From: Botryobacter ruber
Lineage (GTDB): Bacteria; Bacteroidota; Bacteroidia; Cytophagales; Hymenobacteraceae
NCBI RefSeq assembly: GCF_003347595.2
Contig: NZ_QCZK02000055.1
Coordinates: forward strand, 1 to 64,000
Direction of reading: 5' to 3'
DNA: 64,000 nt
Positions 1-21,227 of this stretch are shown here, in pieces. Made by a program: the position numbers and the translations under genes. Below the pieces are notes generated by a model. The model searched no databases. It saw only the letters and a program-made list of their open reading frames with translations, and was not told the origin of the DNA. The first letter of the stretch is position 1; each line of letters begins with the position of its first letter.

Positions 1-3000
1 ACCAAAAGCCCCAACCAGGCCACCTACGCCAGCGGCAGCACGGTTACCCTTACAGCTACGCCGGCTGCTGGCTACGTCTTTTCAGGATGGAGTGGCGACG
101 CTACGGGTACAACCAATCCGCTGACGGTAACCATGAACAGTAACAAGTCCATTACGGCCACCTTTACCGCTGTTCCCAGTTATAGCTTGTCGGTTAGTAC
201 CTCTGGCAGCGGTACTGTTACCAAAAGCCCCAACCAGGCCACCTACACCAGTGGCAGCACGGTTACACTCACAGCTACGCCGGCTCCCGGTTATGTTTTC
301 TCCGGCTGGAGCGGCGATGCATCGGGCACTACTAATCCACTGTCGGTGACCATGAACAACAACAAGTCCATCACGGCTACCTTTGTTGTCGACACCAATG
401 AATATAGTCTCTCGCTCAGCACTTCGGGCAGCGGCACCGTCTCTAAAAGCCCTAATCAAACGACCTACACCAGTGGCAGCACCGTCTCCTTAACAGCTAC
501 GCCAGCCGCTGGCTACGTCTTTTCAGGATGGAGCGGCGATGCTACAGGAACTGCCAATCCACTGTCGGTAACCATGACCAGCAACAAGTCCATTACGGCT
601 ACTTTTGTTGCTGTTTACAGCCTGTCGGTCAGCACCTCTGGCAGCGGTACTGTTGCGAAGAGTCCGAACCAGGCCACCTACACCAGCGGCAGTACCGTCT
701 CGCTGACGGCGACTCCGGCTTCCGGCTATGCTTTCACGGGCTGGAGCGGGGATGCGTCGGGTACTGCCAACCCGCTGTTGGTGACCATGAACAGCAACAA
801 AAACATCACGGCTACCTTTACCGCTCTTCCCAGCGGGCCACAGGTGACAGGCTTTGTACTCGTCGATGCCAGCACAGAACAGGACATCCGTCCCGTTAGC
901 AACGGAGATATCATTGCGCTTTCCTCGTTGCCTGACACCAAGCTCAACATCCGTGGCAACACCTCACCATCCACGGTGGGCAGCGTGGTCCTGGAGTTAA
1001 GCGGCACCCAGAGCAAGACCTATACCGATGACCGTGCCCCCTATACTCTACACGGCGACAACGGCAATGGCAACTACTACTACGGCAACTGGAATCCGCC
1101 GGCAACAGGCACCTATACGCTCAAGGCCACGCCTTATTCTGGGAGCAATGGAACCGGCACGCCCGGTACTCCGCTCATTGTCTCCTTTACCTTTGTGCAA
1201 TCGGACCAGACACCACCCGCTGTGGTAAGCATAAAGCGCCAGACACCTGCTACCACTACTACTGGTGCTACCTCAGTTGTATTCCGGGCATCTTTTTCTG
1301 AAAAGGTGAACGGTGTCGATGCATCGGATTTTGTGCCAACAGTTCCGGCAGGAACGTTGTCTGCCAGTGTTTCTTCTGTAGCTGCTGCTGGCACCGACGG
1401 TAGCACCTACGACATCACCGTTAGCCCGGTAACAGGAAACGGGGAGCTACGGCTGGACCTGAAAGCCAGTGGCACTAGTATTGTGGATGGAAACAGCAAC
1501 GCCATCAGCGGCGGCTTTACCGCTGGTGAAAGCTATACTATTCTGCAGGATTTTGAACCCCCGGTGGTGCTGAGCATCAGCAGGCAGTCGCCGGAAGCAG
1601 ACAGCACCAATGCTACGGCTGTTACCTTCCGGGCTGTTTTCTCAGAAGGAGTAAACGGCGTGGATGCAAATGATTTCAGCCTCGCCATATCCGGCGCTTT
1701 AACCGGGGTGGTAAACTCCGTGGCTGCCATTGGCACTGACGGCTCTACCTACGACATCGTCGTCAGTCCCGTTGAAGGAGACGGCAAGCTGCGGCTGGAC
1801 CTGAAAGCCAGTGGAACCGGCATCGGGGATGGTGCAGGCAATCCCATCAGCGGCGGCTTTACCACCGGTGAAACATACACCATCCGGCAGGACGTGGAGG
1901 GACCGGTGGTGCTGCGCATCAGCAGGCAATCGCCGGCGGTAGACAGCACCGATGCCACCTCCGTTACCTTCCGGGCTGTTTTTTCCGAAGAAGTCTTTGG
2001 GCTGGATGAGGCAGATTTCACGGTTGTCACGACCGGTGTGCTTAGTGGAGCGGTTAGTTCAGTTGCGGCCGTTGGCTCTGACGGCACTACCTTTGATATC
2101 GTCGTCAGCCCGGTATCGGGTGATGGGAAGCTGCGGCTGGACCTGAACGATACTGGTACCGGTATTACAGATGTACTGGGCAATACGAGCAGCGGCGGCT
2201 TTACCTCCGGAGAAGTTTATACCATCCGGCAGGACCTGGAACCGCCGGTGGTGCTGAGCATCAGCAGGCAGTTGCCGGAAGCAGACAGCACCCTTGCCGG
2301 CACCGTTACCTTCCGGGCTACTTTCTCCGAAGGCGTTACCGGTGTGGATGCGGCAGATTTTGCTGTTGTGGCCTCTGGTGGGCTCAGTGGTGGTAGTATT
2401 GCTGCTGTAACGGAAGCAGATACAGCAGGCATCAGCTACGACATTACCGTTAACTCATTTTCAGGAGAGGGTAATCTGCGGCTGGACCTGAATGCCGCTG
2501 GCACCGGTGTTACGGATGTTATTGGCAATACGATTACCAGCGGCTTTACTTCCGGCGAAGTTTATATGATTCTGGAGGCGCCGGAAGTAGTGAGCATCAG
2601 CAGGCAGTCACCGGCGGCAGACAGCACCGATGCTACAGCTGTTACTTTCCGGGCTGTTTTCTCCGAAGCAGTGAGTGGCGTAGACGAGGCAGACTTTGCG
2701 CTTAGTATCGTTTCAGGTACAATAAGCGGCGAGGTTTCTGCGGTGGTGCCTGTGGATCTGGAAAATACCATCTACGACATTGTGGTTGGCGCCATCGAGG
2801 GTGACGGTAAACTGCGGCTGGACCTGAAAGCCGACAGCACCGGTATTACGGATGCCATAGGCAATGCCATCAGCGGCGGCTTTACTTCCGGTGAAATTTA
2901 CACCATCCAGCAGACTGTTATTGATGCCGTGGCGCCGGAAGTGCTGAGCATCAACAGGCACTCACCACCAGAAGACAGTACCGGTACCACCTCCGTTACG

Positions 3001-6000
3001 TTCCGGGCCACTTTCTCGGAAGGCGTCAGTGGCGTAGATAAAACTGATTTTACACTTACCACTGTTTCAGGTACCGTAAGCGGCAGTATTTCTGTCATTG
3101 TTCCGGTGGATATGGAAAAAACGATCTACGATATTGTGGTCAGCTCCATCCAGGGAGACGGTGTGTTGCGCCTGGACCTGAATGCCGGTGGTACCGGCAT
3201 TGCAGATGGCGCAGGCAATGCCATCAGCGGCGGCTTTACCACCGGCGAAACCTACACCATTCAGCAGACACCTCCGGATGAGGTGGCGCCGGTGGTGCAG
3301 CGCATCAACAGGCAGTCACCGCTTAGCGATACCACCGATGCTACGATTGTTACCTTCCGGGCAACTTTCTCTGAAGCAGTGAGTGGGGTGGATGCTGCAG
3401 ACTTTACCCTTGTGATATCCGGGGCGCTCAGCGGGGCAATTGATGCTGTAGCCGCCGCAGATACCACAGGCATCAGCTACGACATCAGCATTCGCTCCAT
3501 TCTAGGAAATGGCGTATTGCGGCTGGACCTGAAATCCAGTGGCACAGGCATAGTAGATGGGGCAGGAAATGCTATCGGCACAGGCTTTACCACGGGCGAA
3601 AAATACGTTATAGAGCAGGATGTGGAACCGCCGGTGGCGCTGAGCATCAACAGGCAAACACCAGCGACAGACACCACCGATGCTACGGCTGTTACCTTCC
3701 GGGCTACTTTCTCTGAAGCAGTGAGTGGGGTGGATGCAGCAGACTTTACCCTGATTCCATCCGGAGCAGTAAGCGGAGCAATAGGCTCTGTCGCGGCTGT
3801 TGGCACCGACAGCACTGCCTACGACATCGTTGTCAGCTCCATCCTGGGAGACGGCAAGCTGCGGCTGGACCTGAATTCGGTAGGTACCGGTATCGAGGAT
3901 GGGGCAGGCAATGCCATTAGCAGCGGCTTTACCGGAGGAGAAAGCTATGTTATCAAGCAGGACGTGGTGGCGCCGGTGGTGCAGCGCATCAACAGGGAAT
4001 TACCTTTAACCGATACTACCGATGCTACGGCTGTTACCTTCCGGGCAACTTTCTCTGAAGCAGTGAGTGGGGTGGATGCTGCAGACTTTACCCTTGTGAT
4101 ATCCGGGGCGCTCAGCGGGGCAATTGATGCTGTAGCCGCCGCAGATACCACAGGCATCAGCTACGACATCAGCATTCGCTCCATTCTAGGAAATGGCGTA
4201 TTGCGGCTGGACCTGAAATCCAGTGGCACAGGCATAGTAGATGGGGCAGGAAATGCTATCGGCACAGGCTTTACCACCGGCGAAAAATACGTTATAGAGC
4301 AGGATGTGGAACCGCCGGTGGCGCTGAGCATCAACAGGCAAACACCAGCGACAGACACCACAGATGCTACAGCTGTTACCTTCCGGGCTACTTTCTCTGA
4401 AGCAGTGAGTGGGGTGGATGCAGCAGACTTTACCCTGATCCCATCCGGAGCAGTCAGCGGAGCAATAGACTCTGTCGCAGTTGTTGGCACCGACAGCACT
4501 GCCTACGACATCGTCGTCAGCTCCATCCTGGGAGACGGTAAGCTGCGGCTGGACCTGAATTCGGTAGGTACCGGTATCGAGGATGGGGCAGGCAATGCCA
4601 TCAGCAGCGGCCTTACCTCCGGCCAGACATACACCATTATCCAGACACCTCCGGATACGGAAGCGCCCGAGGTAGCGAGCATCAACAGGCTGTCGCCCCC
4701 GGCAGACAGCACCGATGCCACCTCGGTTACTTACCGGGCAATTTTCTCCGAAGCAGTGAGTGGCGTAGACGAGGCAGACTTTGCGCTTACAATTCTTTCA
4801 GGTACAGTAAGCGGTGCGGTTTCGGTGGTGGTGCCTGTGGATATGGAAAAAACGATCTACGATATTGTGATCAGCTCCATCCAGGGCGACGGTAAACTGC
4901 GCCTGGACCTGAATGCAGACAGTACCGGTATCGTGGATGCAGCAGGAAATGCGATCGGCGGCGGCTTTACTTCCGGTGAGGTTTACACCATCCAGCAGAC
5001 ATTTATTGATGCTGTAGCGCCGCAAATACTGAGTATTAACAGGCAGTCGCCACTGGTAGACAGTACGGGCGTTACCTCTGTTACTTTCAGGGCTACCTTC
5101 TCAGAAGGGGTGAGCGGTGTTGATAAAGCAGACTTTACGCTTACCACAGTCAGAGGTACAGTAAAGGGCAAGATTACGGTTGCGTTGTCTGTTGATAAGG
5201 AAAAAACTACCTACGACATTGTTGTCGGTTCCATTAAGGGCGACGGTAAACTGCGCCTGGACTTAAATTCGGGCGGCACCGGTATTACAGATGGCGCAGG
5301 CAATGCGATCAGCGGCGGCTTTACCACCGGAGAGATGTATACCATCCGGCATGACTTAGTAGCGCCGGTGGTGCTGAGCATCAACAGGCAATCGCCGGCG
5401 GTAGACAGCTCCGATGTTACGGCTGTTACCTTCCGGGCCACCTTCTCAGAAGAAGTAACCGGCGTAGATGCAGCAGACTTTGCAATTGTCACAACCCGGA
5501 CGTTGACTGGAGTAATTGATTCTGTAACTGCTGTCGGCACCGACGGTACCACCTACGACATCTTCCTCAGCCAGGTGCTGGGCGACGGTAAACTGCGGCT
5601 GGATCTGAATGCCAGTGGAACCGGTATCAAAGATATTGCCACCAATGCCATTAGTGGCGGCTTTACTACCGGAGAGGTGTTTACCATCCGGCATGACCTG
5701 GTGCTGCCGGAGCTGTTGAGCATCAGCAGGCTGGAACCCGCAGCAGACAGTACCGATGCTACGGCTGTTACCTTCCGGGCAACTTTCTCTGAAGAAGTAA
5801 GCGGTGTGGATGCAGCCGACTTTGCGGTGGTCACCGTCACACCCAGAACGTTAGATGCAACGATTGCTTCGGTAGTTGCCTTTGGCACCGGTGGCACCAC
5901 CTACGACATCATCCTCAACCCGGTACTGGGCGACGGTAAGCTGCGCCTGGATCTGAAAGCAACAGGCACACGTATCGAGGACCCGGCAGGCAATGCGATC

Positions 6001-9000
6001 AGTGGCGGCTTTACCACCGGGGAGGTGTATACCATCCGGCAGGACCTGGTGGAACCGGAGTTGCTGAGCCTCAACAGGCAGTCGCCGCTGGCAGACAGTA
6101 CCGATGCCACCTCCGTTACCTTCCGGGCGACCTTCTCGGAGGGAGTTATCGGTGTGGATGCAGCCGACTTTGCGGTGGTTACTGTTACACCCAGAACGTT
6201 AGATGTAACGATTAATGCAGTAGTTGCCGTCGGCACCGACGGTACCACCTACGACATCGTCCTCGACCCGGTACTGGGCGACGGTAAACTGCGCCTGGAC
6301 CTGAAAGCCAGCGGCACCGGTATTGCAGACCCGATAGGCAATATGATCAGTGGCGGCTTTACTACCGGAGAGGTGTATACCATCCGGCAGGACCTGGAAC
6401 CGCCGGTGGTGCTGCGCATCAGCAGGCACTTGCCGGTAGTAGATAGTTCGGATGTTACGGCTGTTACCTACCGGGCTGTTTTCTCAGAAGGGGTTCTGGG
6501 CGTAGATGCAGCAGACTTTTCTGTTGTCACAACCAATACGTTAACCGGAACAATTAATTCAGTAGTTGCCGTCGGCACCGACGGCACCACCTACGACATT
6601 CTCCTCGATCCGGTATTGGGAGACGGTAAACTGCGGCTGGACCTGAAAGCCAGCGGTACCGGTATTGCAGACCCGATAGGCAACGTGATGAACAGCGGCT
6701 TTACTTCAGGAGAAGTTTATACCATCCGGCAGGATGTGGTGGCGCCGGTGATGCTGAGTATCAACAGGTACTCGCCGGCAGTAGACAGCACCGATGCCAC
6801 CTCCGTCACCTTCCAGGCAACGTTCTCGGAAGGCGTGAAAGGTGTGGATGCGGCGGATTTCACGGTGGTTACGACCGGCGTGCTGAGTGGTGTGATTAGC
6901 GCAGTAGTAGCTGTCGGCACCGACGGAACTACCTACAACATCACCCTCAATCCTGTTTCGGGAAATGGCGACTTGCGCCTGGACCTGAAAGCCAGCGGTA
7001 CCGGCATCCGGGATATCGCAACCAACCCCATCAGTGGCGGCTTTACCACCGGTGAGATTTATGAGATTCAGCAACGGCCAACGCTGCTGAGCATCAGCCG
7101 TAAGGTACCGGTTGCCTATACCACCGATACGACTTCCGTTACGTACCGGGCCGTTTTCTCGGAGCGTGTGACAGGCGTAGATGCAGCAGACTTCAATGTA
7201 GTTGTGTCCGGAACCTTAAGTGGCGTAGTTAAAGCTGTAGCTGCCGTTGGCACCGAAGGCACTACCTATGATATTCCCGTTGGAACAATAGTTGGAGACG
7301 GTATCCTGGGCCTGGCACTGAAAACAAGCGGCACCGGTATTGTAGATGTAACAGGTAATGCTTTCATGGAAGCGCCTTACGCAAGCGAGAGCTATAACGT
7401 GCAGCAGCCGCCAACCGTGCTGAGCATTAAACGCTATAACCCCACTACCTCTGCCAGCCACAATGCTTCTTCTGTTATCTACAGGGTCAGTTTCTCGGAA
7501 CGGGTTACCGGGGTAGATTATACTGATTTTATAGCGAAGGCTGTCTCGGGTCCGGTGAGCGGCGTGCTGGCTCCTGACGCAGTGGCGCCTGTGGGTACAG
7601 ATGGCAAAACGTATGAAGTTACCATCAGTTCTATCACCGACGAGGGTATCCTGCGCCTGGACCTCAAACCTACCGGAACAGGTATTGCCGATGCAGTGGG
7701 GAACGCCATCCGGAGTGGCTTTACCACTGGCGAAACCTATATTTTCGAGGAAGCATCGCCAGGACAAGGGTTCTCTTCGGTTATCGACCTGGCGCCGCTG
7801 GAGATATCTAAAAATACACAGGACAAGCCCCAGTCAAAAGTGTGGATGCATGATGGCAAGCACTGGACCGTGCTGCCAGACAACAATGGTACCCATATCT
7901 GGCGCCTGGACAGCGCTACCTGGACCCGGGCCTATACGGTTTCTTCCACTTCATCCAGCAGGGCTGACTGTAAAGTGGTGGGCAATGTGGTGCATATTTT
8001 CCTGTTCCGTGGAAGTTCCACCTCTTACCTGGCATCGGTGCAATACGATGCGGCGAGCAAAAACTATAAGGCCTGGTCGCAGAGGTCCGGTCTGTCTGAA
8101 GTTGATCTTGACCCCGAGCCGGAAACGGCGACCATGGACATAGACGGCACCGGCAGGATGTGGGTAGCTTACGACGGGCGTAACAATGTAAAGGTGCGCT
8201 GGAGCGATCCGCCTTACACTGCCTGGAGTGCACCAGATACCCTTGCCACAGGTATACATGAAGATGACATCTGCGCGGTGGTGGCATTGCCCGGTAAAGT
8301 TGGCGTGCTTTGGTCAAACCAGAACACAAAACTTTTCGGCTTCAGAACCCATACCGACGGCGCCGCCTCCACTGTGTGGTCGGCGGATGAAGCACCTTGT
8401 TCATCGTCGGCACAGGATGTGGGCTATGGTATGGCCGATGATCATATGAACATGGCAGTTGGCAGCGACGGCACCCTGTATTGTGCCGTAAAGACAGGCT
8501 TCGACAAATCGGGTTACATCAAACTGGCGCTGATGGTAAGGCGTGCGGAAGGCTCCTGGGATGGCCTTTACAAAGTAACCGATGTGGAAGGAACCAGGCC
8601 TATTATACTGCTGAATGAGGCTATCGGCAAGATCAGAATTGTGTATACCGAAGTTGAAAATGGCGGCAACATTCTGTACAGGGAATCTCAGATGTACAAT
8701 GTTTCCTTCAGTACGCCGCTTACGTTAATGAGAGGTACCTATAACTATGTCACCAGCATCAAAGACAACCATACCTCCGAAGTGGTGATCCTGGCCTCGA
8801 ACGATACTGCTGCCGTTGGAGTGCTTGGAATTGATGGTTTGGCTGCTTCCTCAACTGCTGCTGCAACCTTGGTTTCGGTGCAGGAGAAAGACAAGGACGG
8901 AGAACTGCAGGCCTATCCGAATCCGTTTACGTCCACAGTAACCATTACGTATGCGTTACCGGAGGAAGGGGAGTACACCCTGACGCTGTACGACAGCAAA

Positions 9001-9156
9001 GGTGCCCAGGTAAACGCGATCAGCAGGGGCAGGGCAGAGGCAGGCGAACTGCATACGGTTGAGGTGGACGGCACAAAACTGAGCAGGGGGCTTTACTTCA
9101 TCCGGCTGCAGACGGCCCAGGGTACCCGGTCCTTGAAACTGGTACTTGAAAAGTAA
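1..9156 (+). CDS. Giant multimodular T9SS surface protein, 5' truncated by the window edge
   Basis: The frame is open from base 1, so the ATG at 133 is an internal methionine and at least 3051 residues are present. Modules in order: one partial and three full InlB-type B repeats of about 70 residues each (1-830; GWSGDA and NSNKSITATF motifs), one Ig-like domain (about 838-1200; GNYYYGNWNPPATG), then 19 tandem Ig-like modules of about 114 residues (about 1204-7755; FSEAVSGVDAADF, YDI and LRLDL motifs), a region of about 360 residues with propeller-like spacing (about 7768-8860; SKVWMHDGKHWTVLP), and a T9SS type A sorting domain (about 8905-9156; AYPNPF). It is probably exported by T9SS and anchored on the surface as an adhesin or matrix protein; that role is inference. 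Its C-terminal half is shared with the next two genes. Modules 7-8 and 9-10 are nearly identical in DNA. Confidence 0.9.
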   Translation, partial: TKSPNQATYASGSTVTLTATPAAGYVFSGWSGDATGTTNPLTVTMNSNKSITATFTAVPSYSLSVSTSGSGTVTKSPNQATYTSGSTVTLTATPAPGYVFSGWSGDASGTTNPLSVTMNNNKSITATFVVDTNEYSLSLSTSGSGTVSKSPNQTTYTSGSTVSLTATPAAGYVFSGWSGDATGTANPLSVTMTSNKSITATFVAVYSLSVSTSGSGTVAKSPNQATYTSGSTVSLTATPASGYAFTGWSGDASGTANPLLVTMNSNKNITATFTALPSGPQVTGFVLVDASTEQDIRPVSNGDIIALSSLPDTKLNIRGNTSPSTVGSVVLELSGTQSKTYTDDRAPYTLHGDNGNGNYYYGNWNPPATGTYTLKATPYSGSNGTGTPGTPLIVSFTFVQSDQTPPAVVSIKRQTPATTTTGATSVVFRASFSEKVNGVDASDFVPTVPAGTLSASVSSVAAAGTDGSTYDITVSPVTGNGELRLDLKASGTSIVDGNSNAISGGFTAGESYTILQDFEPPVVLSISRQSPEADSTNATAVTFRAVFSEGVNGVDANDFSLAISGALTGVVNSVAAIGTDGSTYDIVVSPVEGDGKLRLDLKASGTGIGDGAGNPISGGFTTGETYTIRQDVEGPVVLRISRQSPAVDSTDATSVTFRAVFSEEVFGLDEADFTVVTTGVLSGAVSSVAAVGSDGTTFDIVVSPVSGDGKLRLDLNDTGTGITDVLGNTSSGGFTSGEVYTIRQDLEPPVVLSISRQLPEADSTLAGTVTFRATFSEGVTGVDAADFAVVASGGLSGGSIAAVTEADTAGISYDITVNSFSGEGNLRLDLNAAGTGVTDVIGNTITSGFTSGEVYMILEAPEVVSISRQSPAADSTDATAVTFRAVFSEAVSGVDEADFALSIVSGTISGEVSAVVPVDLENTIYDIVVGAIEGDGKLRLDLKADSTGITDAIGNAISGGFTSGEIYTIQQTVIDAVAPEVLSINRHSPPEDSTGTTSVTFRATFSEGVSGVDKTDFTLTTVSGTVSGSISVIVPVDMEKTIYDIVVSSIQGDGVLRLDLNAGGTGIADGAGNAISGGFTTGETYTIQQTPPDEVAPVVQRINRQSPLSDTTDATIVTFRATFSEAVSGVDAADFTLVISGALSGAIDAVAAADTTGISYDISIRSILGNGVLRLDLKSSGTGIVDGAGNAIGTGFTTGEKYVIEQDVEPPVALSINRQTPATDTTDATAVTFRATFSEAVSGVDAADFTLIPSGAVSGAIGSVAAVGTDSTAYDIVVSSILGDGKLRLDLNSVGTGIEDGAGNAISSGFTGGESYVIKQDVVAPVVQRINRELPLTDTTDATAVTFRATFSEAVSGVDAADFTLVISGALSGAIDAVAAADTTGISYDISIRSILGNGVLRLDLKSSGTGIVDGAGNAIGTGFTTGEKYVIEQDVEPPVALSINRQTPATDTTDATAVTFRATFSEAVSGVDAADFTLIPSGAVSGAIDSVAVVGTDSTAYDIVVSSILGDGKLRLDLNSVGTGIEDGAGNAISSGLTSGQTYTIIQTPPDTEAPEVASINRLSPPADSTDATSVTYRAIFSEAVSGVDEADFALTILSGTVSGAVSVVVPVDMEKTIYDIVISSIQGDGKLRLDLNADSTGIVDAAGNAIGGGFTSGEVYTIQQTFIDAVAPQILSINRQSPLVDSTGVTSVTFRATFSEGVSGVDKADFTLTTVRGTVKGKITVALSVDKEKTTYDIVVGSIKGDGKLRLDLNSGGTGITDGAGNAISGGFTTGEMYTIRHDLVAPVVLSINRQSPAVDSSDVTAVTFRATFSEEVTGVDAADFAIVTTRTLTGVIDSVTAVGTDGTTYDIFLSQVLGDGKLRLDLNASGTGIKDIATNAISGGFTTGEVFTIRHDLVLPELLSISRLEPAADSTDATAVTFRATFSEEVSGVDAADFAVVTVTPRTLDATIASVVAFGTGGTTYDIILNPVLGDGKLRLDLKATGTRIEDPAGNAISGGFTTGEVYTIRQDLVEPELLSLNRQSPLADSTDATSVTFRATFSEGVIGVDAADFAVVTVTPRTLDVTINAVVAVGTDGTTYDIVLDPVLGDGKLRLDLKASGTGIADPIGNMISGGFTTGEVYTIRQDLEPPVVLRISRHLPVVDSSDVTAVTYRAVFSEGVLGVDAADFSVVTTNTLTGTINSVVAVGTDGTTYDILLDPVLGDGKLRLDLKASGTGIADPIGNVMNSGFTSGEVYTIRQDVVAPVMLSINRYSPAVDSTDATSVTFQATFSEGVKGVDAADFTVVTTGVLSGVISAVVAVGTDGTTYNITLNPVSGNGDLRLDLKASGTGIRDIATNPISGGFTTGEIYEIQQRPTLLSISRKVPVAYTTDTTSVTYRAVFSERVTGVDAADFNVVVSGTLSGVVKAVAAVGTEGTTYDIPVGTIVGDGILGLALKTSGTGIVDVTGNAFMEAPYASESYNVQQPPTVLSIKRYNPTTSASHNASSVIYRVSFSERVTGVDYTDFIAKAVSGPVSGVLAPDAVAPVGTDGKTYEVTISSITDEGILRLDLKPTGTGIADAVGNAIRSGFTTGETYIFEEASPGQGFSSVIDLAPLEISKNTQDKPQSKVWMHDGKHWTVLPDNNGTHIWRLDSATWTRAYTVSSTSSSRADCKVVGNVVHIFLFRGSSTSYLASVQYDAASKNYKAWSQRSGLSEVDLDPEPETATMDIDGTGRMWVAYDGRNNVKVRWSDPPYTAWSAPDTLATGIHEDDICAVVALPGKVGVLWSNQNTKLFGFRTHTDGAASTVWSADEAPCSSSAQDVGYGMADDHMNMAVGSDGTLYCAVKTGFDKSGYIKLALMVRRAEGSWDGLYKVTDVEGTRPIILLNEAIGKIRIVYTEVENGGNILYRESQMYNVSFSTPLTLMRGTYNYVTSIKDNHTSEVVILASNDTAAVGVLGIDGLAASSTAAATLVSVQEKDKDGELQAYPNPFTSTVTITYALPEEGEYTLTLYDSKGAQVNAISRGRAEAGELHTVEVDGTKLSRGLYFIRLQTAQGTRSLKLVLEK
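1204..7755 (+). repeat. 19 tandem Ig-like modules (about 342 bp period)
   Basis: I counted nineteen units in the translation, each opening with a PVVLSINRQSP-like strand and closing with a GGFTTGETYTI-like strand. Most units are clearly diverged from their neighbours. Units 7-8 (about 3297-3978) and 9-10 (about 3981-4662) match base for base over long stretches at an offset of exactly 684 bp, which indicates a recent duplication of a two-module block. Confidence 0.9.
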
Positions 9157-9213
9157 GCGGTGCCGTACAGGCAGGTGTAGCAACACGAAGCCTGACGACA
9201 GGCTGTTCACAAC

Positions 9214-9252
9214 AAAAACAGCACGAGCTTTTTAGCTCGTGCTGTTTTTTTA
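9214..9252 (+). terminator. Rho-independent terminator of the giant surface protein
   Basis: A perfect 16-bp stem (9214-9229 with 9234-9249) closes a 4-nt T loop and runs into a T tract, 58 bp after the stop codon. The A-rich 5' arm means it could also work on the other strand. Confidence 0.9.
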
Positions 9253-9288
9253 TGCTTTCGGTTTTAAAACAACTGCCACAGTTCAGCA

Positions 9289-9376
9289 GCAGAGGCTGTG
9301 GTGGCAGGCGCAGCAGCGTTTTTTACATGCGTCGCAGGCCCCGAAACGCTTCTGCTCCTGCCACCACAGCCTCTGC
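9289..9376. repeat. Facing pair of the dispersed GGCTGTGGTGG repeat
   Basis: A forward copy (9289-9318) faces a reverse copy (9347-9376). The arms pair over 30 positions with two mismatches around a 28-nt loop. The pair lies in the 727-bp gap after the first surface protein. The rest of that gap (9463-9883) is AT-rich, and I see no gene or confident promoter in it. Confidence 0.75.
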
Positions 9377-9426
9377 TCCACGTGTGCTATGAAAGTAGTT
9401 GTCCTCCATCGTAGATGGCGGTTTAA

Positions 9427-9462
9427 GGTCTGCTGCACCAGTCACCACAGCCTCTGCTGCTC
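9427..9462 (-). repeat. Dispersed repeat copy
   Basis: Third copy in this gap, in reverse orientation: it reads TGCTGCACCAGTCACCACAG, then CCTCTGCTGC. It differs from the consensus at a few positions. Confidence 0.65.
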
Positions 9463-9883
9463 GTCTGGAAGGTAGCGGTTTAGTTGCACAGGCGGGTTGG
9501 CATCGGTTCCTGTTCCTGCTCCTGCATTCAACCTATTTCATGGTGTAAGAGATGCAGTTTAAGCCTCAGGGGAACACAATAGCAGCATTTCTATATAGAG
9601 TCACAGCGATAAAGTACAAAAAATGTCTTTCGCATGCCAAACTGCTGCCTATACAATTCCAAAGCGTGCTTTAACTAAATACTGCTTTACCGTTTAAACT
9701 TATTATAGTGTTATTCTTATAATGTAAGAGAAGATGAAGTTTTTAATTGCTTCATTAGCAGGTTGGTGGGCGGGGATTTTAGGCTGCTTGCAGATTTTTT
9801 GTTCAAGCGACTCTCGGAGAGAAAAGGGACGCAGCAGCTACATTTTTTAACATTATGTTCAATACTCTTACATTGTTACGCTT

Positions 9884-12800
9884 ATGATTGTTAATACTAT
9901 TACTTTATTTGTTACAATTTTATTGCCTTTAAGTTTGTTTGCGCAGGCAAGCATCGTACCGTTTGGTTCTGACTGGAAATACCAGGATAACGGAACTGAC
10001 CTGGGCGTAGCCTGGCGTGCCGCCTCCTTTGACGACAGTAGCTGGGAAACAGGCAACGGAAAGTTTGGGTATGGCGAGAGCGGGCTTGCCACCTTGGTAG
10101 ACTATGGTCCCGACTCAGATGAAAAATACATCACGACCTATTTCCGGAAGGATGTAAGTATTGCTGATATGAGTGACTACGCTTCGGTGGAAGGCAGTAT
10201 GTACTGTGACGATGGGCTGGTGGTGTATGTGAACGGGGAGGAGGTGCATCGTTACAACCTTCCGGACGGCACTGTCTCCTACAACACACTTGCTTCCGGT
10301 GCCGACGACGACGGGGATGACGTGCATTCTTTTCCCATCAGCCCTGCTGTTTTTGAAAACGGTACGAACGTGATAGCCGTGGAGGTACACCAGTCAAAGC
10401 CAAGTTCTTCGGATATAGTTTTTGACATGCAACTGGCGGGTGTCGAAGAAACTACTGCTGCGGTTGCAGACGAGCAGCAGGTAACGGGTTTTATACTGAT
10501 TGACTCGCACACCGAACAGGAAGTAAAACCTATTTCCAATGGCGATGTTATCTCGCTGGCCTCGCTGCCTTCCTCTAAAGTAAACATCCGCGCCGTCACC
10601 TCCCCGGCCTCGGTGGGCAGTGTGATTTTTGAGCTGAGCGGCACCCAGAGCAAGACCTATACCGACCGGGCCGCTCCCTATGCGCTGCACGGCGACAACG
10701 GCGACGGCAACTACTACTACGGCAACTGGAATCCGCCGGCAACAGGCTCCTACACGTTGAAGGCTACACCTTACTCCGGCAGCGACGGCACTGGCACTCC
10801 CGGTACGCCGCTCACCATCTCCTTTACCTTTGTGGAAGATGATGGTACTCCGCCTCCTGCCGAACAATACAGCCTTTCGGTCAGCACATCCGGCAGCGGT
10901 ACCGTTACGAAGAACCCTAACCAAACGACCTACGACAGCGGCAGTACCGTTTCCTTAACAGCTTCGCCAGCCTCCGGCTATGCCTTTGCCGGCTGGAGCG
11001 GAGACGCATCCGGCACTACCAACCCGTTGTCGGTGACGATGAACAGCAACAAGTCTATCACGGCTACTTTTACCGCTGTTTCCTCTGGTGAATACAGCCT
11101 TTCGGTGAGTACAACGGGCAGCGGTACCGTTACCAAAAGCCCGGACCAGGCCACCTACACCAGCGGCAGCACCGTTACGCTAGAGGCAACACCGGCCTCC
11201 GGCTACACCTTTTCCGGCTGGAGCGGCGATGCTTCGGGTACGACCAACCCGCTGGCAGTTACCATGAACAGCAACAAAAACATCACGGCTAACTTCGTTG
11301 CCGTTTCCAGCAGTCAGCAGGTGACAGGCTTTATGCTCGTCGATTCCAAAACGGAGCAGGAAGTCAAGCCTATTTCCAACGGAGAAGTGATCAGCCTGGC
11401 TTCGCTGGACAACACGAAACTAAACATCCGCGCCGTCACTTCTCCGTCCTCGGTAGGCAGTGTGATCTTTGAGTTGAGCGGCACCCAGAGCAAGACCTAT
11501 ACCGACCAGGCCGCACCTTACGCGCTGCACGGCGACAACGGCAGCGGCAACTACTACTACGGCAACTGGAATCCGCCGGCAACAGGCTCCTACACGTTGA
11601 AGGCTACACCTTACTCCGGCAGCGGCACGCCCGGCACGCCGCTCACCATCTCCTTTACCTTTGTGGAAGAGGGTGGCACGCCAACAACAGATCAAACCCC
11701 TCCTTATGTGGTTAGCATCAGCCGCCTGTCGCCAACTACTTCTACCACAAGTGCGACATCAGTTGTATTCAGAGTTGCTTTTTCGGAGGGTGTTGTAGGA
11801 GTGGGCACAGCTGATTTTACAGCTACCCGCGTGTCGGGTACCGTGAGCGGAAGTGTTTCCGGTGTTACCTCTGGCAGCTCAACCTACGACGTCACCGTCA
11901 GCTCGATTACCGGAGAGGGCGAACTGCGCCTGGACCTCAAGGCCAGCGGTACCGGTATTGCGGATGCAGCGGGCAATGCCATCAGCGGCGGCTACACCAG
12001 CGGGCAGAGCTATCTTATACAGGCTTCGTCAGGCGGCGGCGGTGGAAGTTCGGGACCAGGATTCGCCTCTGTGACGCCACTTACACCATTGTCGGTATCG
12101 AAAAATACGGCAGATAAGCCACAGTCTAAAGTGTGGATACACGACGGGAAGCACTGGACGATCATGCCCAACTCGTCAGGCACGCATATCTGGCGGCTCG
12201 ATGGCACCACCTGGACACGAATTTTAACGCTCATTTCCAGCTCCTCTGCCCGGGCAGACTGCAAGGTGGTTGGAAATGTGGTACACGCACTTCTTTTCAG
12301 AGGCAGCTCCACTTCTTACCTGGTATCGGCAGAATATGACCCGGCTACAAAAACCTACAAAGCCTGGACACAACGCACGACCAGAGCAGACGTTCCGATT
12401 GAAGATGATGCCGAAACAGCCACCATCGATATAGATGGGAACGGCAGGATGTGGGTAGCCTACGATGCGAGCAACGATGTATATGTACGCTGGAGCGATT
12501 CGCCTTATACGTCCTGGAGTTCCCCCATACGGCTTGCCTCCGGTATACTCGGAAATGAAGATGACATGTGTGCCGTCATCGCATTGCCCGGCAAAATTGG
12601 CGTACTGTGGTCGAACCAGAATACCGAGCGCTTTGGCTTCAGAACCCATACCGACGGTGCTTCCCCGACTTCCTGGTCAGGTGACGAGGCGCCCGGGGCG
12701 TCAGGAGCACTAAATATTGGCTACGGCCTGGCCGACGGGCACCTGAACATGGCCGTGGCCAGCGACGGTACCTTATATTGTGCCGTTAAAACCGGTTACG

Positions 12801-13474
12801 ACAGGTCGGGCTATCCGAAGCTGGCGCTGCTGGTGCGTCGTCCGAACGGCAGCTGGGATAATCTCTATGCCGTTACCAATACCACGGAGGGAACCAGGCC
12901 TATTGTGATCTTGAATGAAACCATTGGCAGGGTCAGGGTTATCTACACGGAAATTGAGAATGGCGGCGACATCAGGTACCGCGAGTCTTCTACCTCCAAC
13001 ATCTCTTTCGGTTCCTCCTTCACTTTAATAAAAGGAGACTATAACTATGTGACCAGCATCAAGGCCAACCACAGCTCCGAAGTGGTAATCTTGGCCTCGA
13101 GCAGTTCGCAGGCCGTTGGCGTGCTGGCAAAGGACAATGTTTCTACTGTTTCAAGCACTTCGTCAACAGTTGCAGCTACGGCTGCTTTTGTAGCTGAAGA
13201 GGAGAACGATCTGCGGGGAGAGCTGCAGGTATATCCGAATCCGGTTTCGTCTGGCGGTACCATTACGTTTTCGTTGCCGGCAGATAGTGAGTATACCCTG
13301 AAACTGTACGACAGCAAAGGGGCTCAGGTAACCTGCATCAGCCAGGGCAGTGCTGCGGCAGGTAAGCTGTATACTGTTGAGTTGAATGGCGCAAGGTTGA
13401 ACAGCGGGCTCTACATTGTAAGGCTGCAGACAGCTGAGGGGGTAAAGGCGCTTAAATTAATGGTTGAAAAGTAA
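9884..13474 (+). CDS. Mosaic T9SS surface protein with Ig-like and InlB repeats
   Basis: 1196 residues. A signal peptide (about 1-21, ending LSLFAQ) is followed by a jelly-roll-like module (about 22-190; SWETGNGKFGYGES, YVNGEEVHRYN), an Ig-like domain (DNA 10480-10843), two InlB-type B repeats (10861-11310), a second Ig-like domain (11320-11680), one FSEGV/LRLDL Ig-like module (11692-12025), a glycine-rich linker, the same propeller-like region as its neighbours (about 12052-13150) and a T9SS type A sorting domain (about 13225-13474; VYPNPV). It is expected at the cell surface; ligand and function are unknown. The two internal Ig-like domains are almost identical in DNA over their second half, pointing to duplication or gene conversion. 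The start is supported by the signal peptide that follows directly. Confidence 0.9.
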   Translation: MIVNTITLFVTILLPLSLFAQASIVPFGSDWKYQDNGTDLGVAWRAASFDDSSWETGNGKFGYGESGLATLVDYGPDSDEKYITTYFRKDVSIADMSDYASVEGSMYCDDGLVVYVNGEEVHRYNLPDGTVSYNTLASGADDDGDDVHSFPISPAVFENGTNVIAVEVHQSKPSSSDIVFDMQLAGVEETTAAVADEQQVTGFILIDSHTEQEVKPISNGDVISLASLPSSKVNIRAVTSPASVGSVIFELSGTQSKTYTDRAAPYALHGDNGDGNYYYGNWNPPATGSYTLKATPYSGSDGTGTPGTPLTISFTFVEDDGTPPPAEQYSLSVSTSGSGTVTKNPNQTTYDSGSTVSLTASPASGYAFAGWSGDASGTTNPLSVTMNSNKSITATFTAVSSGEYSLSVSTTGSGTVTKSPDQATYTSGSTVTLEATPASGYTFSGWSGDASGTTNPLAVTMNSNKNITANFVAVSSSQQVTGFMLVDSKTEQEVKPISNGEVISLASLDNTKLNIRAVTSPSSVGSVIFELSGTQSKTYTDQAAPYALHGDNGSGNYYYGNWNPPATGSYTLKATPYSGSGTPGTPLTISFTFVEEGGTPTTDQTPPYVVSISRLSPTTSTTSATSVVFRVAFSEGVVGVGTADFTATRVSGTVSGSVSGVTSGSSTYDVTVSSITGEGELRLDLKASGTGIADAAGNAISGGYTSGQSYLIQASSGGGGGSSGPGFASVTPLTPLSVSKNTADKPQSKVWIHDGKHWTIMPNSSGTHIWRLDGTTWTRILTLISSSSARADCKVVGNVVHALLFRGSSTSYLVSAEYDPATKTYKAWTQRTTRADVPIEDDAETATIDIDGNGRMWVAYDASNDVYVRWSDSPYTSWSSPIRLASGILGNEDDMCAVIALPGKIGVLWSNQNTERFGFRTHTDGASPTSWSGDEAPGASGALNIGYGLADGHLNMAVASDGTLYCAVKTGYDRSGYPKLALLVRRPNGSWDNLYAVTNTTEGTRPIVILNETIGRVRVIYTEIENGGDIRYRESSTSNISFGSSFTLIKGDYNYVTSIKANHSSEVVILASSSSQAVGVLAKDNVSTVSSTSSTVAATAAFVAEEENDLRGELQVYPNPVSSGGTITFSLPADSEYTLKLYDSKGAQVTCISQGSAAAGKLYTVELNGARLNSGLYIVRLQTAEGVKALKLMVEK

Positions 13475-13515
13475 CGCAGAAACTATGGGTAAAAAGGTGA
13501 AAGTTTAAACTAAAC

Positions 13516-13549
13516 GTTGTGCCACAGGTCCGGGGATCTGTGGCACAAC
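13516..13549. other. Intergenic hairpin without T tract
   Basis: A perfect 12-bp stem (13516-13527 with 13538-13549) closes a 10-nt loop 42 bp after the preceding stop codon. No T run follows, so it may be an mRNA 3'-end or processing structure rather than a simple terminator. Confidence 0.55.
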
Positions 13550-13587
13550 TACTAAGTGTCGCATTTAAACGACAATGTCTCCAAACC

Positions 13588-13613
13588 AAAAGCTGCTAAA
13601 AGGCAGCTTTTTA
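13588..13613 (+). terminator. Terminator just upstream of the third surface protein
   Basis: A 9-bp stem (13588-13596 with 13603-13611) with a 6-nt loop, an A-rich 5' side and a T-rich 3' side. It lies inside the first 30 codons of the longest possible reading of the next gene, so that gene most likely starts downstream, at 13662. Confidence 0.7.
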
Positions 13614-13661
13614 CGAATGTCCCGTCTATTTCTATCCTCGACACTAACCTGCATCTTACCT

Positions 13662-16600
13662 ATGAAAACTTTTACCATTTCACTCATCTTAGTACTCCTG
13701 CTTCACATAAGTGTAGCCGCTCAGACAACTGTTTTCCCCTACAACTCTACCTGGAGTTACCTGGACAACGGCACCAACCAGGGCACCGCCTGGCGCGCCA
13801 CCTCTTTCGACGACAGTAGCTGGAAAACAGGCACGGGCAAGTTTGGCTACGGCGAAAGCGGCCTCTCCACTACAGTGAACTATGGCTCCGATTCCAAAAA
13901 CAAATACATCACCACCTATTTCAGAAAAACAATTACGATCGCCGATATCAGCGCTTTTGCCTCCTTCACAGGCAGTATGTACCGCGACGACGGGCTGGTG
14001 GTGTATGTGAACGGAGTGGAGGTACACCGCAGCAGCATGCCCACCGGTACTGTTTCCTACACCACCCTTGCCTACAGCCCAGACGACGATGGCCACGATG
14101 AGCAGACCTTCACCATCAGCAGTTCTTATTTTACAAGCGGCACCAATGTAATAGCCGTGGAGCTACACCAGTCGAAGCTGAACTCCTCCGATCTGATTTT
14201 TGACCTGGCTTTGTCTGCCACTGCGGGCACTTCGTCGCCTGTGGATGAAACAGCGCCAACCCTGGTGAGTATCAACCGGCAGTCTCCCTCAACCCAGACG
14301 ACCAGCGCTACCGCTGTTGTTTTCCGGGCGACCTTCTCAGAGGCAGTTACCGGTGTGGACGCAGGCGACTTTACGTTTACCAAAATTTCGGGAACCGTGA
14401 GCGGCACCGTTAGTGCTGTGGCAGGTGTGGGAACAGACGGAAAAGCCTATGATATTACCGTTAGCTCGATTACCGGAGAAGGCGAACTGCGCCTGGACCT
14501 GAAGCCGAGCGGTACAGGTATTGCAGATGCGGCCAGCAATGCCATCAGCGGCGGGTTTACCAGCGGGCAGACGTACATCATTCAGCAGACAACGACGGAG
14601 CCGGTAGTGGACAACGCCACTTTCCCTTTTAAATCCGGTTGGAAATACCTGGACAACGGCACCAACCAGGGCACCGCCTGGCGTGCCACCTCTTTCGACG
14701 ACAGTAGCTGGAAAACAGGTACGGGTAAGTTTGGCTACGGCGAAAGCGGCCTCTCCACTACAGTGAACTATGGCCCCGATTCCGGGAATAAATACATTAC
14801 CACCTATTTCAGAAAGGCTGTGAATGTAGCAGACATCAGCGCCTACTCCTCCTTTGCCGGCAGCATGTATTGCGACGACGGCATGGTGGTGTATGTGAAC
14901 GGGGTGGAGGTGTACCGCTACAACCTCTCCGGTACCGTTACCTATACCACGCTGGCCGCTGGTGCAAGCGACGACGGTCGTAACGAACATGCCTTTACCA
15001 TCAGTCCTTCTGCTTTTGTAAACGGCACCAACGTGCTGGCGGTAGAGGTGCACCAGTCCAAAGCAAGTTCCTCCGATATCGTTTTTGACCTGGCACTGAC
15101 AGGTGTTACAGGCACACCGCCAGCTACAGATGTAACCCGGCCTGTGGTGGAGAGTATTAACCGCCAGTCGCCCACTACCCAGACAACCAGCGCTACTGCT
15201 GTTACTTTCCGGGTTACTTTCTCCGAAAAAGTTAACAACGTAGACCGGGGCGACTTTACCGTTACCAGGACATCCGGATCGGTGAGCGGAACGCTGGCTT
15301 CTAACGCTATGGCCACGGTCGGGACAGATGGCACTACCTATGACCTTACCGTCAGTTCCATTTCAGGAGAAGGAACGCTGCGGTTGGACCTGAAGTCCAG
15401 CGGTACGGGCATTGTGGATGCGGCAGGCAATGCCATCAGCGGAGGCTTTACCAACGGGCAAACCTATACCATACAGCAGCAGGTTGCGCAGGGACCTGGA
15501 TTTACCTCTGTTACTGACTTAACGCCTTTGTCTGTATCTAAAAACACCGCAGACAAACCGCAATCGAAACCTTGGTCTTATGCCGGCAAGCACTGGGCGG
15601 TGTTGCCCAACTCATCGGGTACGCACATCTGGCGACTGGACGGTACTACCTGGACCAGGGTGCTTGAAATTGCCTCCGGTACAAATTCGAAAGCAGACTG
15701 TAAGGTGGTGGGCAATGTGGTGCATATACTTTTATACAGAGGAGCTTCTTCGAATGCCTATGTTGTATCGGCAGAGTACGTTCCCGAAACCCAGACCTAC
15801 AAACTCTGGTCAAAAAGAACTTCAGCAGCATCTTTTTCGCTTGAATCAGGGGCGGAAACGGCTACGTTAGACATGGATGGCAATGGCAGAATGTGGGTGG
15901 TGTACGATGGCACGAGTAATGTGAACGTGCGCTGGAGCGATTCGCCCTATTCCTCCTGGAGCTCACCTATTGTTGTTGCATCCGGCATAACCGACGATGA
16001 TATTGCCGCCATTATTGCCATGCCCGGTAAAATAGGCGTGCTCTGGTCGAACCAGAACACGGAGCGCTTCGGCTTCAGAACCCACACCGACGGTGCCAGC
16101 CCTACCGACTGGGGAACAGATGAAGCGCCTGCCTCGAATGAGGCCAAAGATGTTGGCGCCGGCCTGGCCGACGACCACCTGAACATGGCCGTAGCCAGCG
16201 ATGGTACCCTGTATTGCGCCGTAAAAACAGGGTACGACAGGTCCGGTTATCCGAAGCTGGCATTGCTGGTGCGCCGCCCTTCCGGCTCCTGGGACAAGCT
16301 CTACGAAGTGTCGCAGTCGGGTACCAGGTCTATCGTGATCCTGAACGAAAGAATCGGGCGGCTGCGCGTAATTTATACCGAAGTAGAAGATGGCGGCGAT
16401 ATCTTGTACCGGGAGTCCGCTACTGCCAACATTTCCTTTGGTTCTGCCATTACCTTAATTAAAGGTAACTACAATAACCCGACCAGCATCAAAGCCAACT
16501 TCAGCTCAGAAGTAGTGATACTGGCTTCTACGAGCAGCGAGGCAGTGGGTGTGCTGGCACGAGACGGTGACGCCGGTTTAAGTGCTTCGTCAACTGCTGG

Positions 16601-16892
16601 CGCTACGGCTGCCCGGTTTGGTGAAGTAGTACAAGGAGAGTTGCTGGCGTATCCGAACCCTTTCGTTTCCGACGTTACGATAACCTATGTGCTGCCGGAG
16701 GAAGGGGAGTATACCCTGGCGCTGTATGATAGTAAAGGAGCGCTGGTGTCCGTTATCGGTCAGGGCATGGCCCGGGCGGGTGAGCAGCAGACGGTTAAGG
16801 TTAACGGCGCTAACCTGGCCAGTGGCCTCTACTTTGTCAGACTGCAGACTGTCAAAGGAGCCCAGCTCCTGAAGCTGGTGGTTGAGCGATAG
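13662..16892 (+). CDS. Mosaic T9SS surface protein with duplicated N-terminal module
   Basis: 1076 residues from the ATG at 13662. This start is chosen because a clean signal peptide follows (MKTFTISLILVLLLHISVAA) and a terminator hairpin lies between it and the upstream in-frame start at 13575. Order: jelly-roll-like module (about 13722-14225), FSEAV/LRLDL Ig-like module (14240-14590), a second jelly-roll-like module (14610-15115), a second Ig-like module (15130-15480), the shared propeller-like region (about 15495-16570) and a T9SS type A sorting domain (about 16640-16892; AYPNPF). The two N-terminal modules share long identical DNA stretches (for example near 13755-13870 and 14655-14770). 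It is the third protein of the tandem family and lacks InlB repeats. Surface location is well supported; function is unknown. Confidence 0.88.
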   Translation: MKTFTISLILVLLLHISVAAQTTVFPYNSTWSYLDNGTNQGTAWRATSFDDSSWKTGTGKFGYGESGLSTTVNYGSDSKNKYITTYFRKTITIADISAFASFTGSMYRDDGLVVYVNGVEVHRSSMPTGTVSYTTLAYSPDDDGHDEQTFTISSSYFTSGTNVIAVELHQSKLNSSDLIFDLALSATAGTSSPVDETAPTLVSINRQSPSTQTTSATAVVFRATFSEAVTGVDAGDFTFTKISGTVSGTVSAVAGVGTDGKAYDITVSSITGEGELRLDLKPSGTGIADAASNAISGGFTSGQTYIIQQTTTEPVVDNATFPFKSGWKYLDNGTNQGTAWRATSFDDSSWKTGTGKFGYGESGLSTTVNYGPDSGNKYITTYFRKAVNVADISAYSSFAGSMYCDDGMVVYVNGVEVYRYNLSGTVTYTTLAAGASDDGRNEHAFTISPSAFVNGTNVLAVEVHQSKASSSDIVFDLALTGVTGTPPATDVTRPVVESINRQSPTTQTTSATAVTFRVTFSEKVNNVDRGDFTVTRTSGSVSGTLASNAMATVGTDGTTYDLTVSSISGEGTLRLDLKSSGTGIVDAAGNAISGGFTNGQTYTIQQQVAQGPGFTSVTDLTPLSVSKNTADKPQSKPWSYAGKHWAVLPNSSGTHIWRLDGTTWTRVLEIASGTNSKADCKVVGNVVHILLYRGASSNAYVVSAEYVPETQTYKLWSKRTSAASFSLESGAETATLDMDGNGRMWVVYDGTSNVNVRWSDSPYSSWSSPIVVASGITDDDIAAIIAMPGKIGVLWSNQNTERFGFRTHTDGASPTDWGTDEAPASNEAKDVGAGLADDHLNMAVASDGTLYCAVKTGYDRSGYPKLALLVRRPSGSWDKLYEVSQSGTRSIVILNERIGRLRVIYTEVEDGGDILYRESATANISFGSAITLIKGNYNNPTSIKANFSSEVVILASTSSEAVGVLARDGDAGLSASSTAGATAARFGEVVQGELLAYPNPFVSDVTITYVLPEEGEYTLALYDSKGALVSVIGQGMARAGEQQTVKVNGANLASGLYFVRLQTVKGAQLLKLVVER

Positions 16893-18484: not shown

Positions 18485-18501
18485 TTTTTAAGTTTTTGGT
18501 T

Positions 18502-20826: not shown

Positions 20827-21227
20827 GCGCCAGCCGGTCGTGTAGCTGCCGAAACAAAAGGATTTGTTGTGCCGGGTGGGTTTGGCAACAGGAGCTTAGG
20901 CGAAGAAAGGTGCTGCGTAGCGTTTGGATAAATCCGGAAGAAAGCTGTTCATCTTGTAGCTGGTTGTTGGAAGCGACCGGCACAGGCGGAGCTTTCGCAG
21001 AATAAAATGTTGTACTTTAAATATTAAAAAATTGTCTTTAATGAGTCTGGCCGCACTCCGAAAGGCTGCTGACACATGGTTTGAAACAGCTCTGTTTGCT
21101 GATGTTCGGAAACCATCACCTGACTCCCCCTCTACCTGGCGACTCATGCCGGGATAGCAATTCAAGTGTACTACACACCGGAAGAATCAGATCTAAATAC
21201 AGTGCGATAAATCTAAACACTCAGAAG

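What the first reader, a model, noticed from the sequence alone, without database searches (positions are those of the whole stretch)
1..16892. Three tandem mosaic surface proteins that exchange modules
The three genes share a C-terminal propeller-like region and T9SS domain but carry different numbers of InlB, Ig-like and jelly-roll modules. Near-identical DNA (for example around 1050-1110, 10690-10750 and 11530-11590) points to ongoing recombination. Their position next to the exopolysaccharide locus suggests a surface or biofilm role.
Basis: partly seen in the sequence, partly recalled or inferred. Interest (0 to 1): 0.55.

Follow-up and report, generated by a model that had tools for sequence, protein, structure and literature searches.

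The report
Modular propeller proteins beside capsule genes
Three neighbouring bacterial surface proteins share an undescribed propeller-shaped domain that relatives keep beside genes for making and cutting their own slime sugar, suggesting the domain handles that sugar while the other, easily lost modules act as spacers or grips.

Summary
The three genes are real mosaics. All end in a shared domain of about 355 residues ("Prop") plus a type A T9SS signal, behind different arrays of InlB-like, "Qdom", Ig-like and jelly-roll modules. Gene 1 is cut by the contig edge.

"Ongoing recombination" holds only in part. Prop copies are near saturation at synonymous sites (dS 1.2-2.6). The quoted near-identical DNA encodes one conserved 14-residue motif, found with 1-3 mismatches in three other genomes. 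The recent event is a 684-nt internal duplication in gene 1. Arrays are nonetheless unstable: one orthologue lacks a 448-residue array, in frame.

The stronger finding is Prop itself: no Pfam or NCBIfam family, no solved homologue by sequence, modelled as a seven-bladed propeller. Its conserved polar residues cluster at inner-strand starts, also in stand-alone homologues. Prop genes sit in exopolysaccharide loci (28 of 38 loci of relatives; 1 of 20 control T9SS loci) and co-occur with a PF14099 polysaccharide lyase (25 of 27 Prop genomes of the genus versus 7 of 23 without). Best reading: a T9SS-displayed domain acting on the cell's own acidic exopolysaccharide, probably as an enzyme, possibly as a lectin. 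Activity is inferred.

The parts
1..9156 (+). Gene 1, 3051 codons, 5' end cut by the contig edge: InlB x4 - Qdom - Ig-like x19 - Prop - T9SS type A tail
841..1194 (+). Qdom of gene 1 (gene 2's Qdom has no Pfam hit at cut-off)
1210..7740 (+). 19 Ig-like (Big_12-type) repeats of about 114 residues
3282..4649 (+). 684-nt tandem duplication of two Ig-like repeats (copies start at 3282 and 3966; dS 0.06 and 0.16): the only recent event found
7762..8826 (+). Prop domain of gene 1
8902..9153 (+). T9SS type A sorting domain of gene 1
9884..13474 (+). Gene 2, 1196 aa: jelly-roll - Qdom - InlB x2 - Qdom - Ig-like - Prop - T9SS tail
10478..10831 (+). Qdom 1 of gene 2
10868..11308 (+). two InlB-like repeats of gene 2
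11318..11662 (+). Qdom 2 of gene 2
12053..13126 (+). Prop domain of gene 2 (modelled)
13575..16892 (+). Gene 3, 1105 aa: jelly-roll - Ig-like - jelly-roll - Ig-like - Prop - T9SS tail
15492..16556 (+). Prop domain of gene 3
17690..18484 (+). Polysaccharide export protein (PF02563, SLBB), Wza-like
18496..20826 (+). Wzc-like chain-length/tyrosine-kinase protein (GNVR, AAA_31)
21081..22325 (+). NAD-dependent nucleotide-sugar epimerase/dehydratase (PF01370); a uronate 4-epimerase is an inference
22371..23873 (+). Wzx-like flippase (PF13440)
27654..28652 (+). Group 1 glycosyltransferase (PF00534)
29827..31134 (+). UDP-glucose/GDP-mannose dehydrogenase (PF03721), expected to make a uronic-acid precursor (inference)

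Best explanation
The three genes encode T9SS-exported surface proteins whose constant part is an undescribed seven-bladed beta-propeller with a conserved asymmetric pocket. I propose that the propeller acts on the cell's own acidic exopolysaccharide, most likely cutting or modifying it, together with the PF14099 lyase of the same locus. The InlB-like, Qdom, Ig-like and jelly-roll modules would be interchangeable arms that set reach or hold sugar. Shown: module composition, sorting signal, locus association, co-occurrence with the lyase, residue conservation, array gain and loss between species. Predicted: the fold and the pocket's place on it. Inferred: enzymatic activity, substrate, and surface anchoring.
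For: Type A T9SS tails over cut-off and SprA in the genome. Fold: AF2 pTM 0.79, pLDDT 73; sugar-handling propellers lead the VIA-align list (PLL/PHL fucose lectins Z about 23-24; GH145/PL42 proteins about 22-23; PL25 ulvan lyase 21.5), and PL25 and PL24 lyases are in the Foldseek list. Pocket: 16 of 25 polar columns conserved at 90% or more in 15 sequences (7 closer ones, 8 distant ones) lie near inner-strand starts, p 2e-6. Context: 28 of 38 Prop loci of other genomes have at least two exopolysaccharide-type genes versus 1 of 20 control T9SS loci of the own genome; 25 of 27 Prop genomes of the genus have a PF14099 lyase over cut-off, versus 7 of 23 without Prop, p 5e-6, and 21 of 27 have one within 20 kb of a Prop gene. 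Of 34 ORFs in the lyase cluster of these loci, 16 also carry Qdom. A genome of another class also has T9SS-tailed Prop genes among polysaccharide-type genes, by sequence reading. Stand-alone homologues lie beside SusC/SusD (L086), a rhamnosidase (L083) and an esterase (L082). The array can be lacking with Prop kept: L046 against L072, 448 residues in frame, Prop 86% identical. The same modules front two phosphatases, and the jelly-roll a phytase, so they tend to be attached to enzyme domains.
Against: No activity was measured. The best VIA matches are lectins, the first Foldseek row is a designed kelch-like propeller, TM-scores are low (about 0.45-0.55), and Z of 20-22 also goes to unrelated propellers such as YncE and streptogramin lyase: the fold does not say enzyme. 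No tyrosine is invariant, unlike the base Tyr proposed for PL25. The seventh inner-strand start was placed by me in a low-confidence stretch. Five of 38 loci show no exopolysaccharide-type gene (L057, L060, L061, L070, L077) and five only one, though L070 does hold a lyase that my gene picker missed. The marker profiles were built from relatives' Prop loci, which inflates their count. The co-occurrence test ignores shared ancestry. Prop is dispensable: 172 of 204 family genomes lack it, while all 50 of the genus have an export protein. Several stand-alone homologues (L078, L080, L081) have no clearly sugar-polymer neighbour.
Confidence: 0.5

Rival explanations
1. Prop is a lectin or anchor: it binds the exopolysaccharide and holds the capsule or biofilm matrix on the cell, without chemistry; the module arrays are stalks.
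For: The highest VIA scores are fucose-binding PLL/PHL lectins (Z about 23-24, about 3 A over some 298 residues). Exopolysaccharide-locus position and surface export fit equally well.
Against: The blades show almost no sequence resemblance to each other (mean z 0.21, maximum 3.48, blade limits set by me), whereas PLL lectins have repeated blades (recalled). Conserved residues differ from blade to blade and many are charged, as in one composite pocket. Some stand-alone homologues lie by degradative genes.
Confidence: 0.3
2. The proteins are a recombining adhesin family: the shared part is only a scaffold and exchange among tandem genes drives surface variation.
For: Module number and order differ within the genome and between species. 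A recent 684-nt internal duplication. Identical-codon runs in three of six Qdom pairs. Gene 2's first InlB-like repeat has its lowest-dS partner (0.57), and its first Qdom its second-lowest (0.54), in C25 phosphatase genes, so modules move between genes over longer times.
Against: The shared domain has dS 1.16-2.61 and the tails 0.88 to saturated, with 1 of 15 and 0 of 15 pairs passing the run test. The quoted identical DNA recurs in other species. The constant domain keeps 35 invariant residues in 15 sequences, seven of them at about 30% identity, which a scaffold need not.
Confidence: 0.15

Closest known systems
BNR_4-type propeller lyases and hydrolases acting on rhamnose-glucuronate sugars (PL24, PL25, PL42, formerly GH145)
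   Same: Predicted seven-bladed propeller; conserved residues at inner-strand starts, which would line the anterior face (standard propeller geometry, recalled), where PMC8377490 (passages read) puts the FoRham1 active site; carbohydrate context
   Different: 10-13% identity in the structural alignments; no Pfam hit, BNR_4 included; no invariant Tyr; T9SS tail and module arrays; sits in biosynthesis loci
PLL/PHL seven-bladed bacterial lectins
   Same: Best VIA score, Z about 23-24
   Different: No clear blade repeat; asymmetric conserved pocket; T9SS sorting signal
AlgL alginate lyase encoded in the alginate biosynthesis cluster
   Same: A polymer-cutting enzyme encoded with the genes that make the polymer (PMC5099689, abstract and part of the introduction seen)
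   Different: AlgL is described as a free periplasmic protein; Prop proteins carry outer-membrane export signals and arrays. The PF14099 lyase of these loci is the nearer analogue
T9SS type A cargo with modular surface architecture
   Same: PF18962/TIGR04183 tail, large repeat-rich proteins
   Different: Shared undescribed propeller and recurrent link to exopolysaccharide and lyase loci

Membership tests
T9SS type A cargo | C-terminal type A sorting domain over curated cut-off | tested here: met
   38.2, 39.8 and 39.1 bits against a cut-off of 23; also PF18962
T9SS type A cargo | T9SS machinery in the same genome | tested here: met
   SprA, 2461.6 bits; other components not searched
T9SS type A cargo | N-terminal export signal | tested here: inconclusive
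   Hydrophobic starts visible in genes 2 and 3, read by eye; gene 1's start is off the contig
PL24/PL25/PL42 propeller lyases | Seven-bladed beta-propeller | tested here: met
   Model with Z 21.4-22.6 to PL25 and PL42 FoRham1; prediction only
PL24/PL25/PL42 propeller lyases | Sequence membership (BNR_4, PF15892; family named in PMC8377490) | tested here: not met
   No BNR_4 hit at E up to 10 for three window Prop domains, nor at E up to 1 for six homologues (one weak BNR_2 hit, E 0.0023, under cut-off)
PL24/PL25/PL42 propeller lyases | His/Tyr base-acid plus Arg neutraliser | tested here: inconclusive
   Invariant H199, H230, R262 and near-invariant R282, but no invariant Tyr; residues not superposed
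PL24/PL25/PL42 propeller lyases | Beta-elimination activity | not testable with these tools
   needs enzyme assay
PLL-type lectins | Seven-bladed fold | tested here: met
   Z about 23-24; prediction only
PLL-type lectins | Repeated blades with repeated sugar sites (recalled) | tested here: inconclusive
   Blade-blade z mean 0.21, max 3.48; the binding sites themselves could not be tested
Recombining surface-variation gene family | Recent exchange between paralogues in the shared region | tested here: not met
   Prop dS 1.16-2.61; one of 15 pairs passes the run test
Recombining surface-variation gene family | Module arrays differ between strains | not tested
   No other strain of this species was compared; between species they differ

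The most novel reading that the evidence does not exclude
Prop founds an undescribed family of surface-displayed beta-propeller enzymes that cut or modify the bacterium's own uronic-acid exopolysaccharide, paired with a PF14099 lyase, and mounted on interchangeable arms that lineages add or drop while the catalytic head stays constant.
Probability: 0.4. Interest if true: 0.65.

Novelty: new variant of a known kind. Interest (0 to 1): 0.48.

Why it matters
If right, it gives a testable function to large T9SS mosaic proteins for which family searches name only repeats and the sorting domain, and links capsule synthesis, capsule cutting and T9SS display in one locus. It would add a carbohydrate-active propeller family without a current Pfam model, and offers natural experiments (arrays gained or lost around a constant head) for asking what the repeat modules do.

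Tried and rejected
Ongoing conversion across the three genes: tested by dS per module and a run test on degenerate codons (4000 shuffles, Bonferroni within module class). Not supported for Prop and tails, nor for InlB-like repeats; partly kept for Qdom. One Prop pair (gene 3 against the C25 515-aa gene) passes (p 0.001), and one jelly-roll pair (p 0.0047); I do not build on them. For the Ig-like repeats (300 pairs) the corrected threshold is below what 4000 shuffles can reach, so that class was not really tested (lowest p 0.0015).

Near-identical 42 nt as proof of exchange: rejected. The first version of that comparison was out of register by one codon and its mismatch counts are void. One search left out L055 and L074, which repeat L001 and L002.

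The first count of exopolysaccharide genes was inflated because the lyase profile matched Qdom in the mosaic genes; one search removed mosaic genes and frames under 200 residues. My gene picker keeps the longest overlapping frame and so missed at least one lyase (L070).

Sequence search of the PDB with Prop gave nothing convincing (best E 0.2; 0.05). The viral structure library gave mostly unnamed phage and giant-virus proteins (TM to the query up to 0.65) and was not followed. The Qdom model is weak (pLDDT 65) and its best Z is 7.8, not above background, so I name no fold for it.

C25 end joined to C51 start: no overlapping bases. The join is inferred from orientation and content only; it is not shown.

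Print: (five searches of an open-access library) listed no paper that by its title or abstract start links T9SS propeller proteins to exopolysaccharide loci; only parts of the rankings were listed. Paper texts seen: passages of PMC8377490, PMC13193363 and PMC10202324; outline, abstract and part of the introduction of PMC5099689.

Full report
WHAT IS THERE. The window is the first 64 kb of contig C51 of a 5.84-Mb genome. The genus is probably Pontibacter: a genome placed in the same genus, G188, has a contig of the same length (156,150) as the Pontibacter sp. HSC-36F09 contig behind L001, and their stretches show the same gene arrangement. Three genes lie in tandem. Pfam names Flg_new_2 (InlB-like), Big_12 (Ig-like) and the T9SS tail, but nothing in the shared 355-358 residues before the tail, here called Prop. 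A second unnamed module, Qdom (about 118 residues), occurs in genes 1 and 2.

MORE THAN THREE. The own genome has six Prop genes: three in the window and three on contig C25. C25 ends inside a gene that starts with a hydrophobic leader (read by eye) and a Qdom and points off the contig end, while C51 begins inside gene 1. I infer, without overlap, that these are one locus. C25 also carries two proteins of 1937 and 1442 residues with T9SS tails (28.1 and 38.3 bits) and purple-acid-phosphatase domains (PF00149, PF16656) behind the same jelly-roll, InlB-like and Qdom modules, one also with seven Ig-like repeats.

RECOMBINATION. Prop pairs among the six copies have dS 1.16-2.61, and one of 15 pairs passes the run test. 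Qdom pairs have dS from 0.42; three of six pairs have longer runs of identical codons than shuffles. The quoted 42-nt identity encodes GNYYYGNWNPPATG. Of 24 copies from other genomes, seven (in L051, L001 and L068) differ from it by 1-3 bases, the rest by 5-11; own copies differ from each other by a median of 4 and from other genomes' copies by 6. So constraint explains most of it. Inside gene 1, repeat pairs at residues 1095/1323 and 1209/1437 have dS 0.06 and 0.16, a 684-nt duplication. Between-gene Ig-like repeat pairs start at dS 0.76. Synonymous codons agree more than codon usage predicts in every module class, Prop included (0.50 against 0.37), which fits common descent.

ARRAYS CHANGE, PROP STAYS. 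I searched 204 genomes of the family; 32 have Prop, 84 copies in all. I fetched stretches that, with the window, hold 73 of the 84. Architectures range from Prop plus tail only (from 467 residues) to 3051 residues, with modules before or after Prop; a few frames are cut by contig or stretch ends. Orthologues differ: L046 lacks 448 residues in frame while Prop is 86% identical to L072; L055 has one InlB-like repeat more than L050 with Prop 88% identical; L048 has an extra jelly-roll/Ig-like pair against L042 (Prop 71%). The one very close pair (L065, L066; Prop 97%, array 91%) has the same order. In the tree of 73 Prop domains, five of the six own copies form one clade (support 99/97). Short (under 620 residues) and long forms change at least 11 times on the tree (9 forced by well-supported branches; 25 in shuffles), so form is partly inherited and partly switches.

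CONTEXT. Counting only non-mosaic genes, 28 of 38 Prop loci from other genomes have at least two exopolysaccharide-type genes, five have one and five none; of 20 other T9SS loci of the own genome one does. The 20 controls were picked by hand through the list, two of them are shorter than the rest, and the profiles came from the relatives' loci, so the contrast is somewhat flattered. In three loci (L042, L048, L049) a long Prop gene lies directly before Wza and Wzc, and in a fourth (L073) before Wza, where the contig ends, as gene 3 does here. PF14099 lyases over cut-off: 25 of 27 Prop genomes of the genus against 7 of 23 without Prop; within 20 kb of a Prop gene in 21 of 27 (not corrected for ancestry). 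Export proteins themselves are in all 50, so they do not discriminate. In the lyase cluster of the loci 16 of 34 frames carry Qdom; the own C25 lyase, 299 residues, showed none.

WIDER FAMILY. Of 390 genomes drawn from the order, 17 match (12 of them in the same family); of 395 drawn from the phylum, 3 match, own included. Seven distant forms (28-32% identity) are about 400 residues with no tail found. Neighbours: SusC and SusD (L086), a TonB-dependent receptor a few genes away (L079), a rhamnosidase (Pfam Bac_rhamnosid; GH78 by recall) and a GDSL hydrolase (L083), an esterase (L082), a phosphoesterase (L080), a glucose/sorbosone dehydrogenase (L081); in L078 I recognised none. L084 and L085, from one genome of another class, keep a T9SS tail, lie among polysaccharide-type genes by sequence reading, and the L085 copy is split over two frames.

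FOLD AND POCKET. AF2 on seven sequences gave pLDDT 73, pTM 0.79; residues 6-24 and 332-358 are under 50. Best VIA matches are PLL/PHL lectins (Z about 23-24), then CylK, GH145/PL42 proteins and, lower, PL25. Across 15 sequences 44 columns are at least 90% conserved; 25 are polar and 16 of these fall between 6 before and 4 after an inner-strand start (77 of 358 residues; p 2e-6): PQSK, AD, ETAT, DD, ADxHxN, R, TxxK. One start (335) was set by me from the motif, so the p-value is somewhat generous. Blades hardly resemble each other.

READING. A constant head with a single conserved pocket, changing arms, a sorting signal, and a recurrent place beside polymer-making and polymer-cutting genes point to a surface protein that handles the cell's own exopolysaccharide. 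The dehydrogenase at 29827 and the epimerase at 21081 suggest uronic acid in the polymer (inference). Enzyme is my first choice (about 0.5), lectin second (0.3).

Noticed in passing
window 9288, 9358, 9439, 17096, 17167 and elsewhere: A dispersed element around CTGCCACCACAGCCTCTGCT occurs 397 times forward and 402 reverse (up to 2 mismatches) in the 5.84-Mb genome, against 0 for the reversed-pattern control. Its consensus is about 30 nt; 25 of 105 copies scanned (up to 3 mismatches, some stretches overlapping) lie in open frames of 150 codons or more. None (up to 2 mismatches) was found in 690 kb of 38 loci from other genomes of the family. A very abundant REP-like repeat, apparently particular to this lineage.
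   Followed up: partly
own contig C25:80688-86498 and 93109-97434: Two T9SS-tailed purple-acid-phosphatase-type proteins whose C-terminal parts are 79% identical (dS 0.58) but with quite different module arrays in front.
   Followed up: partly
   Followed up: no
window 23861-25414: A 517-residue protein with weak kinase/nucleotidyltransferase signatures (Thymidylate_kin E 0.002, NTP_transf_5 E 0.004, both under cut-off) inside the exopolysaccharide locus.
   Followed up: no
window 13475-13574: Strong predicted hairpin (arms GTTGTGCCACAG and CTGTGGCACAAC) between genes 2 and 3, possibly a terminator.
   Followed up: no
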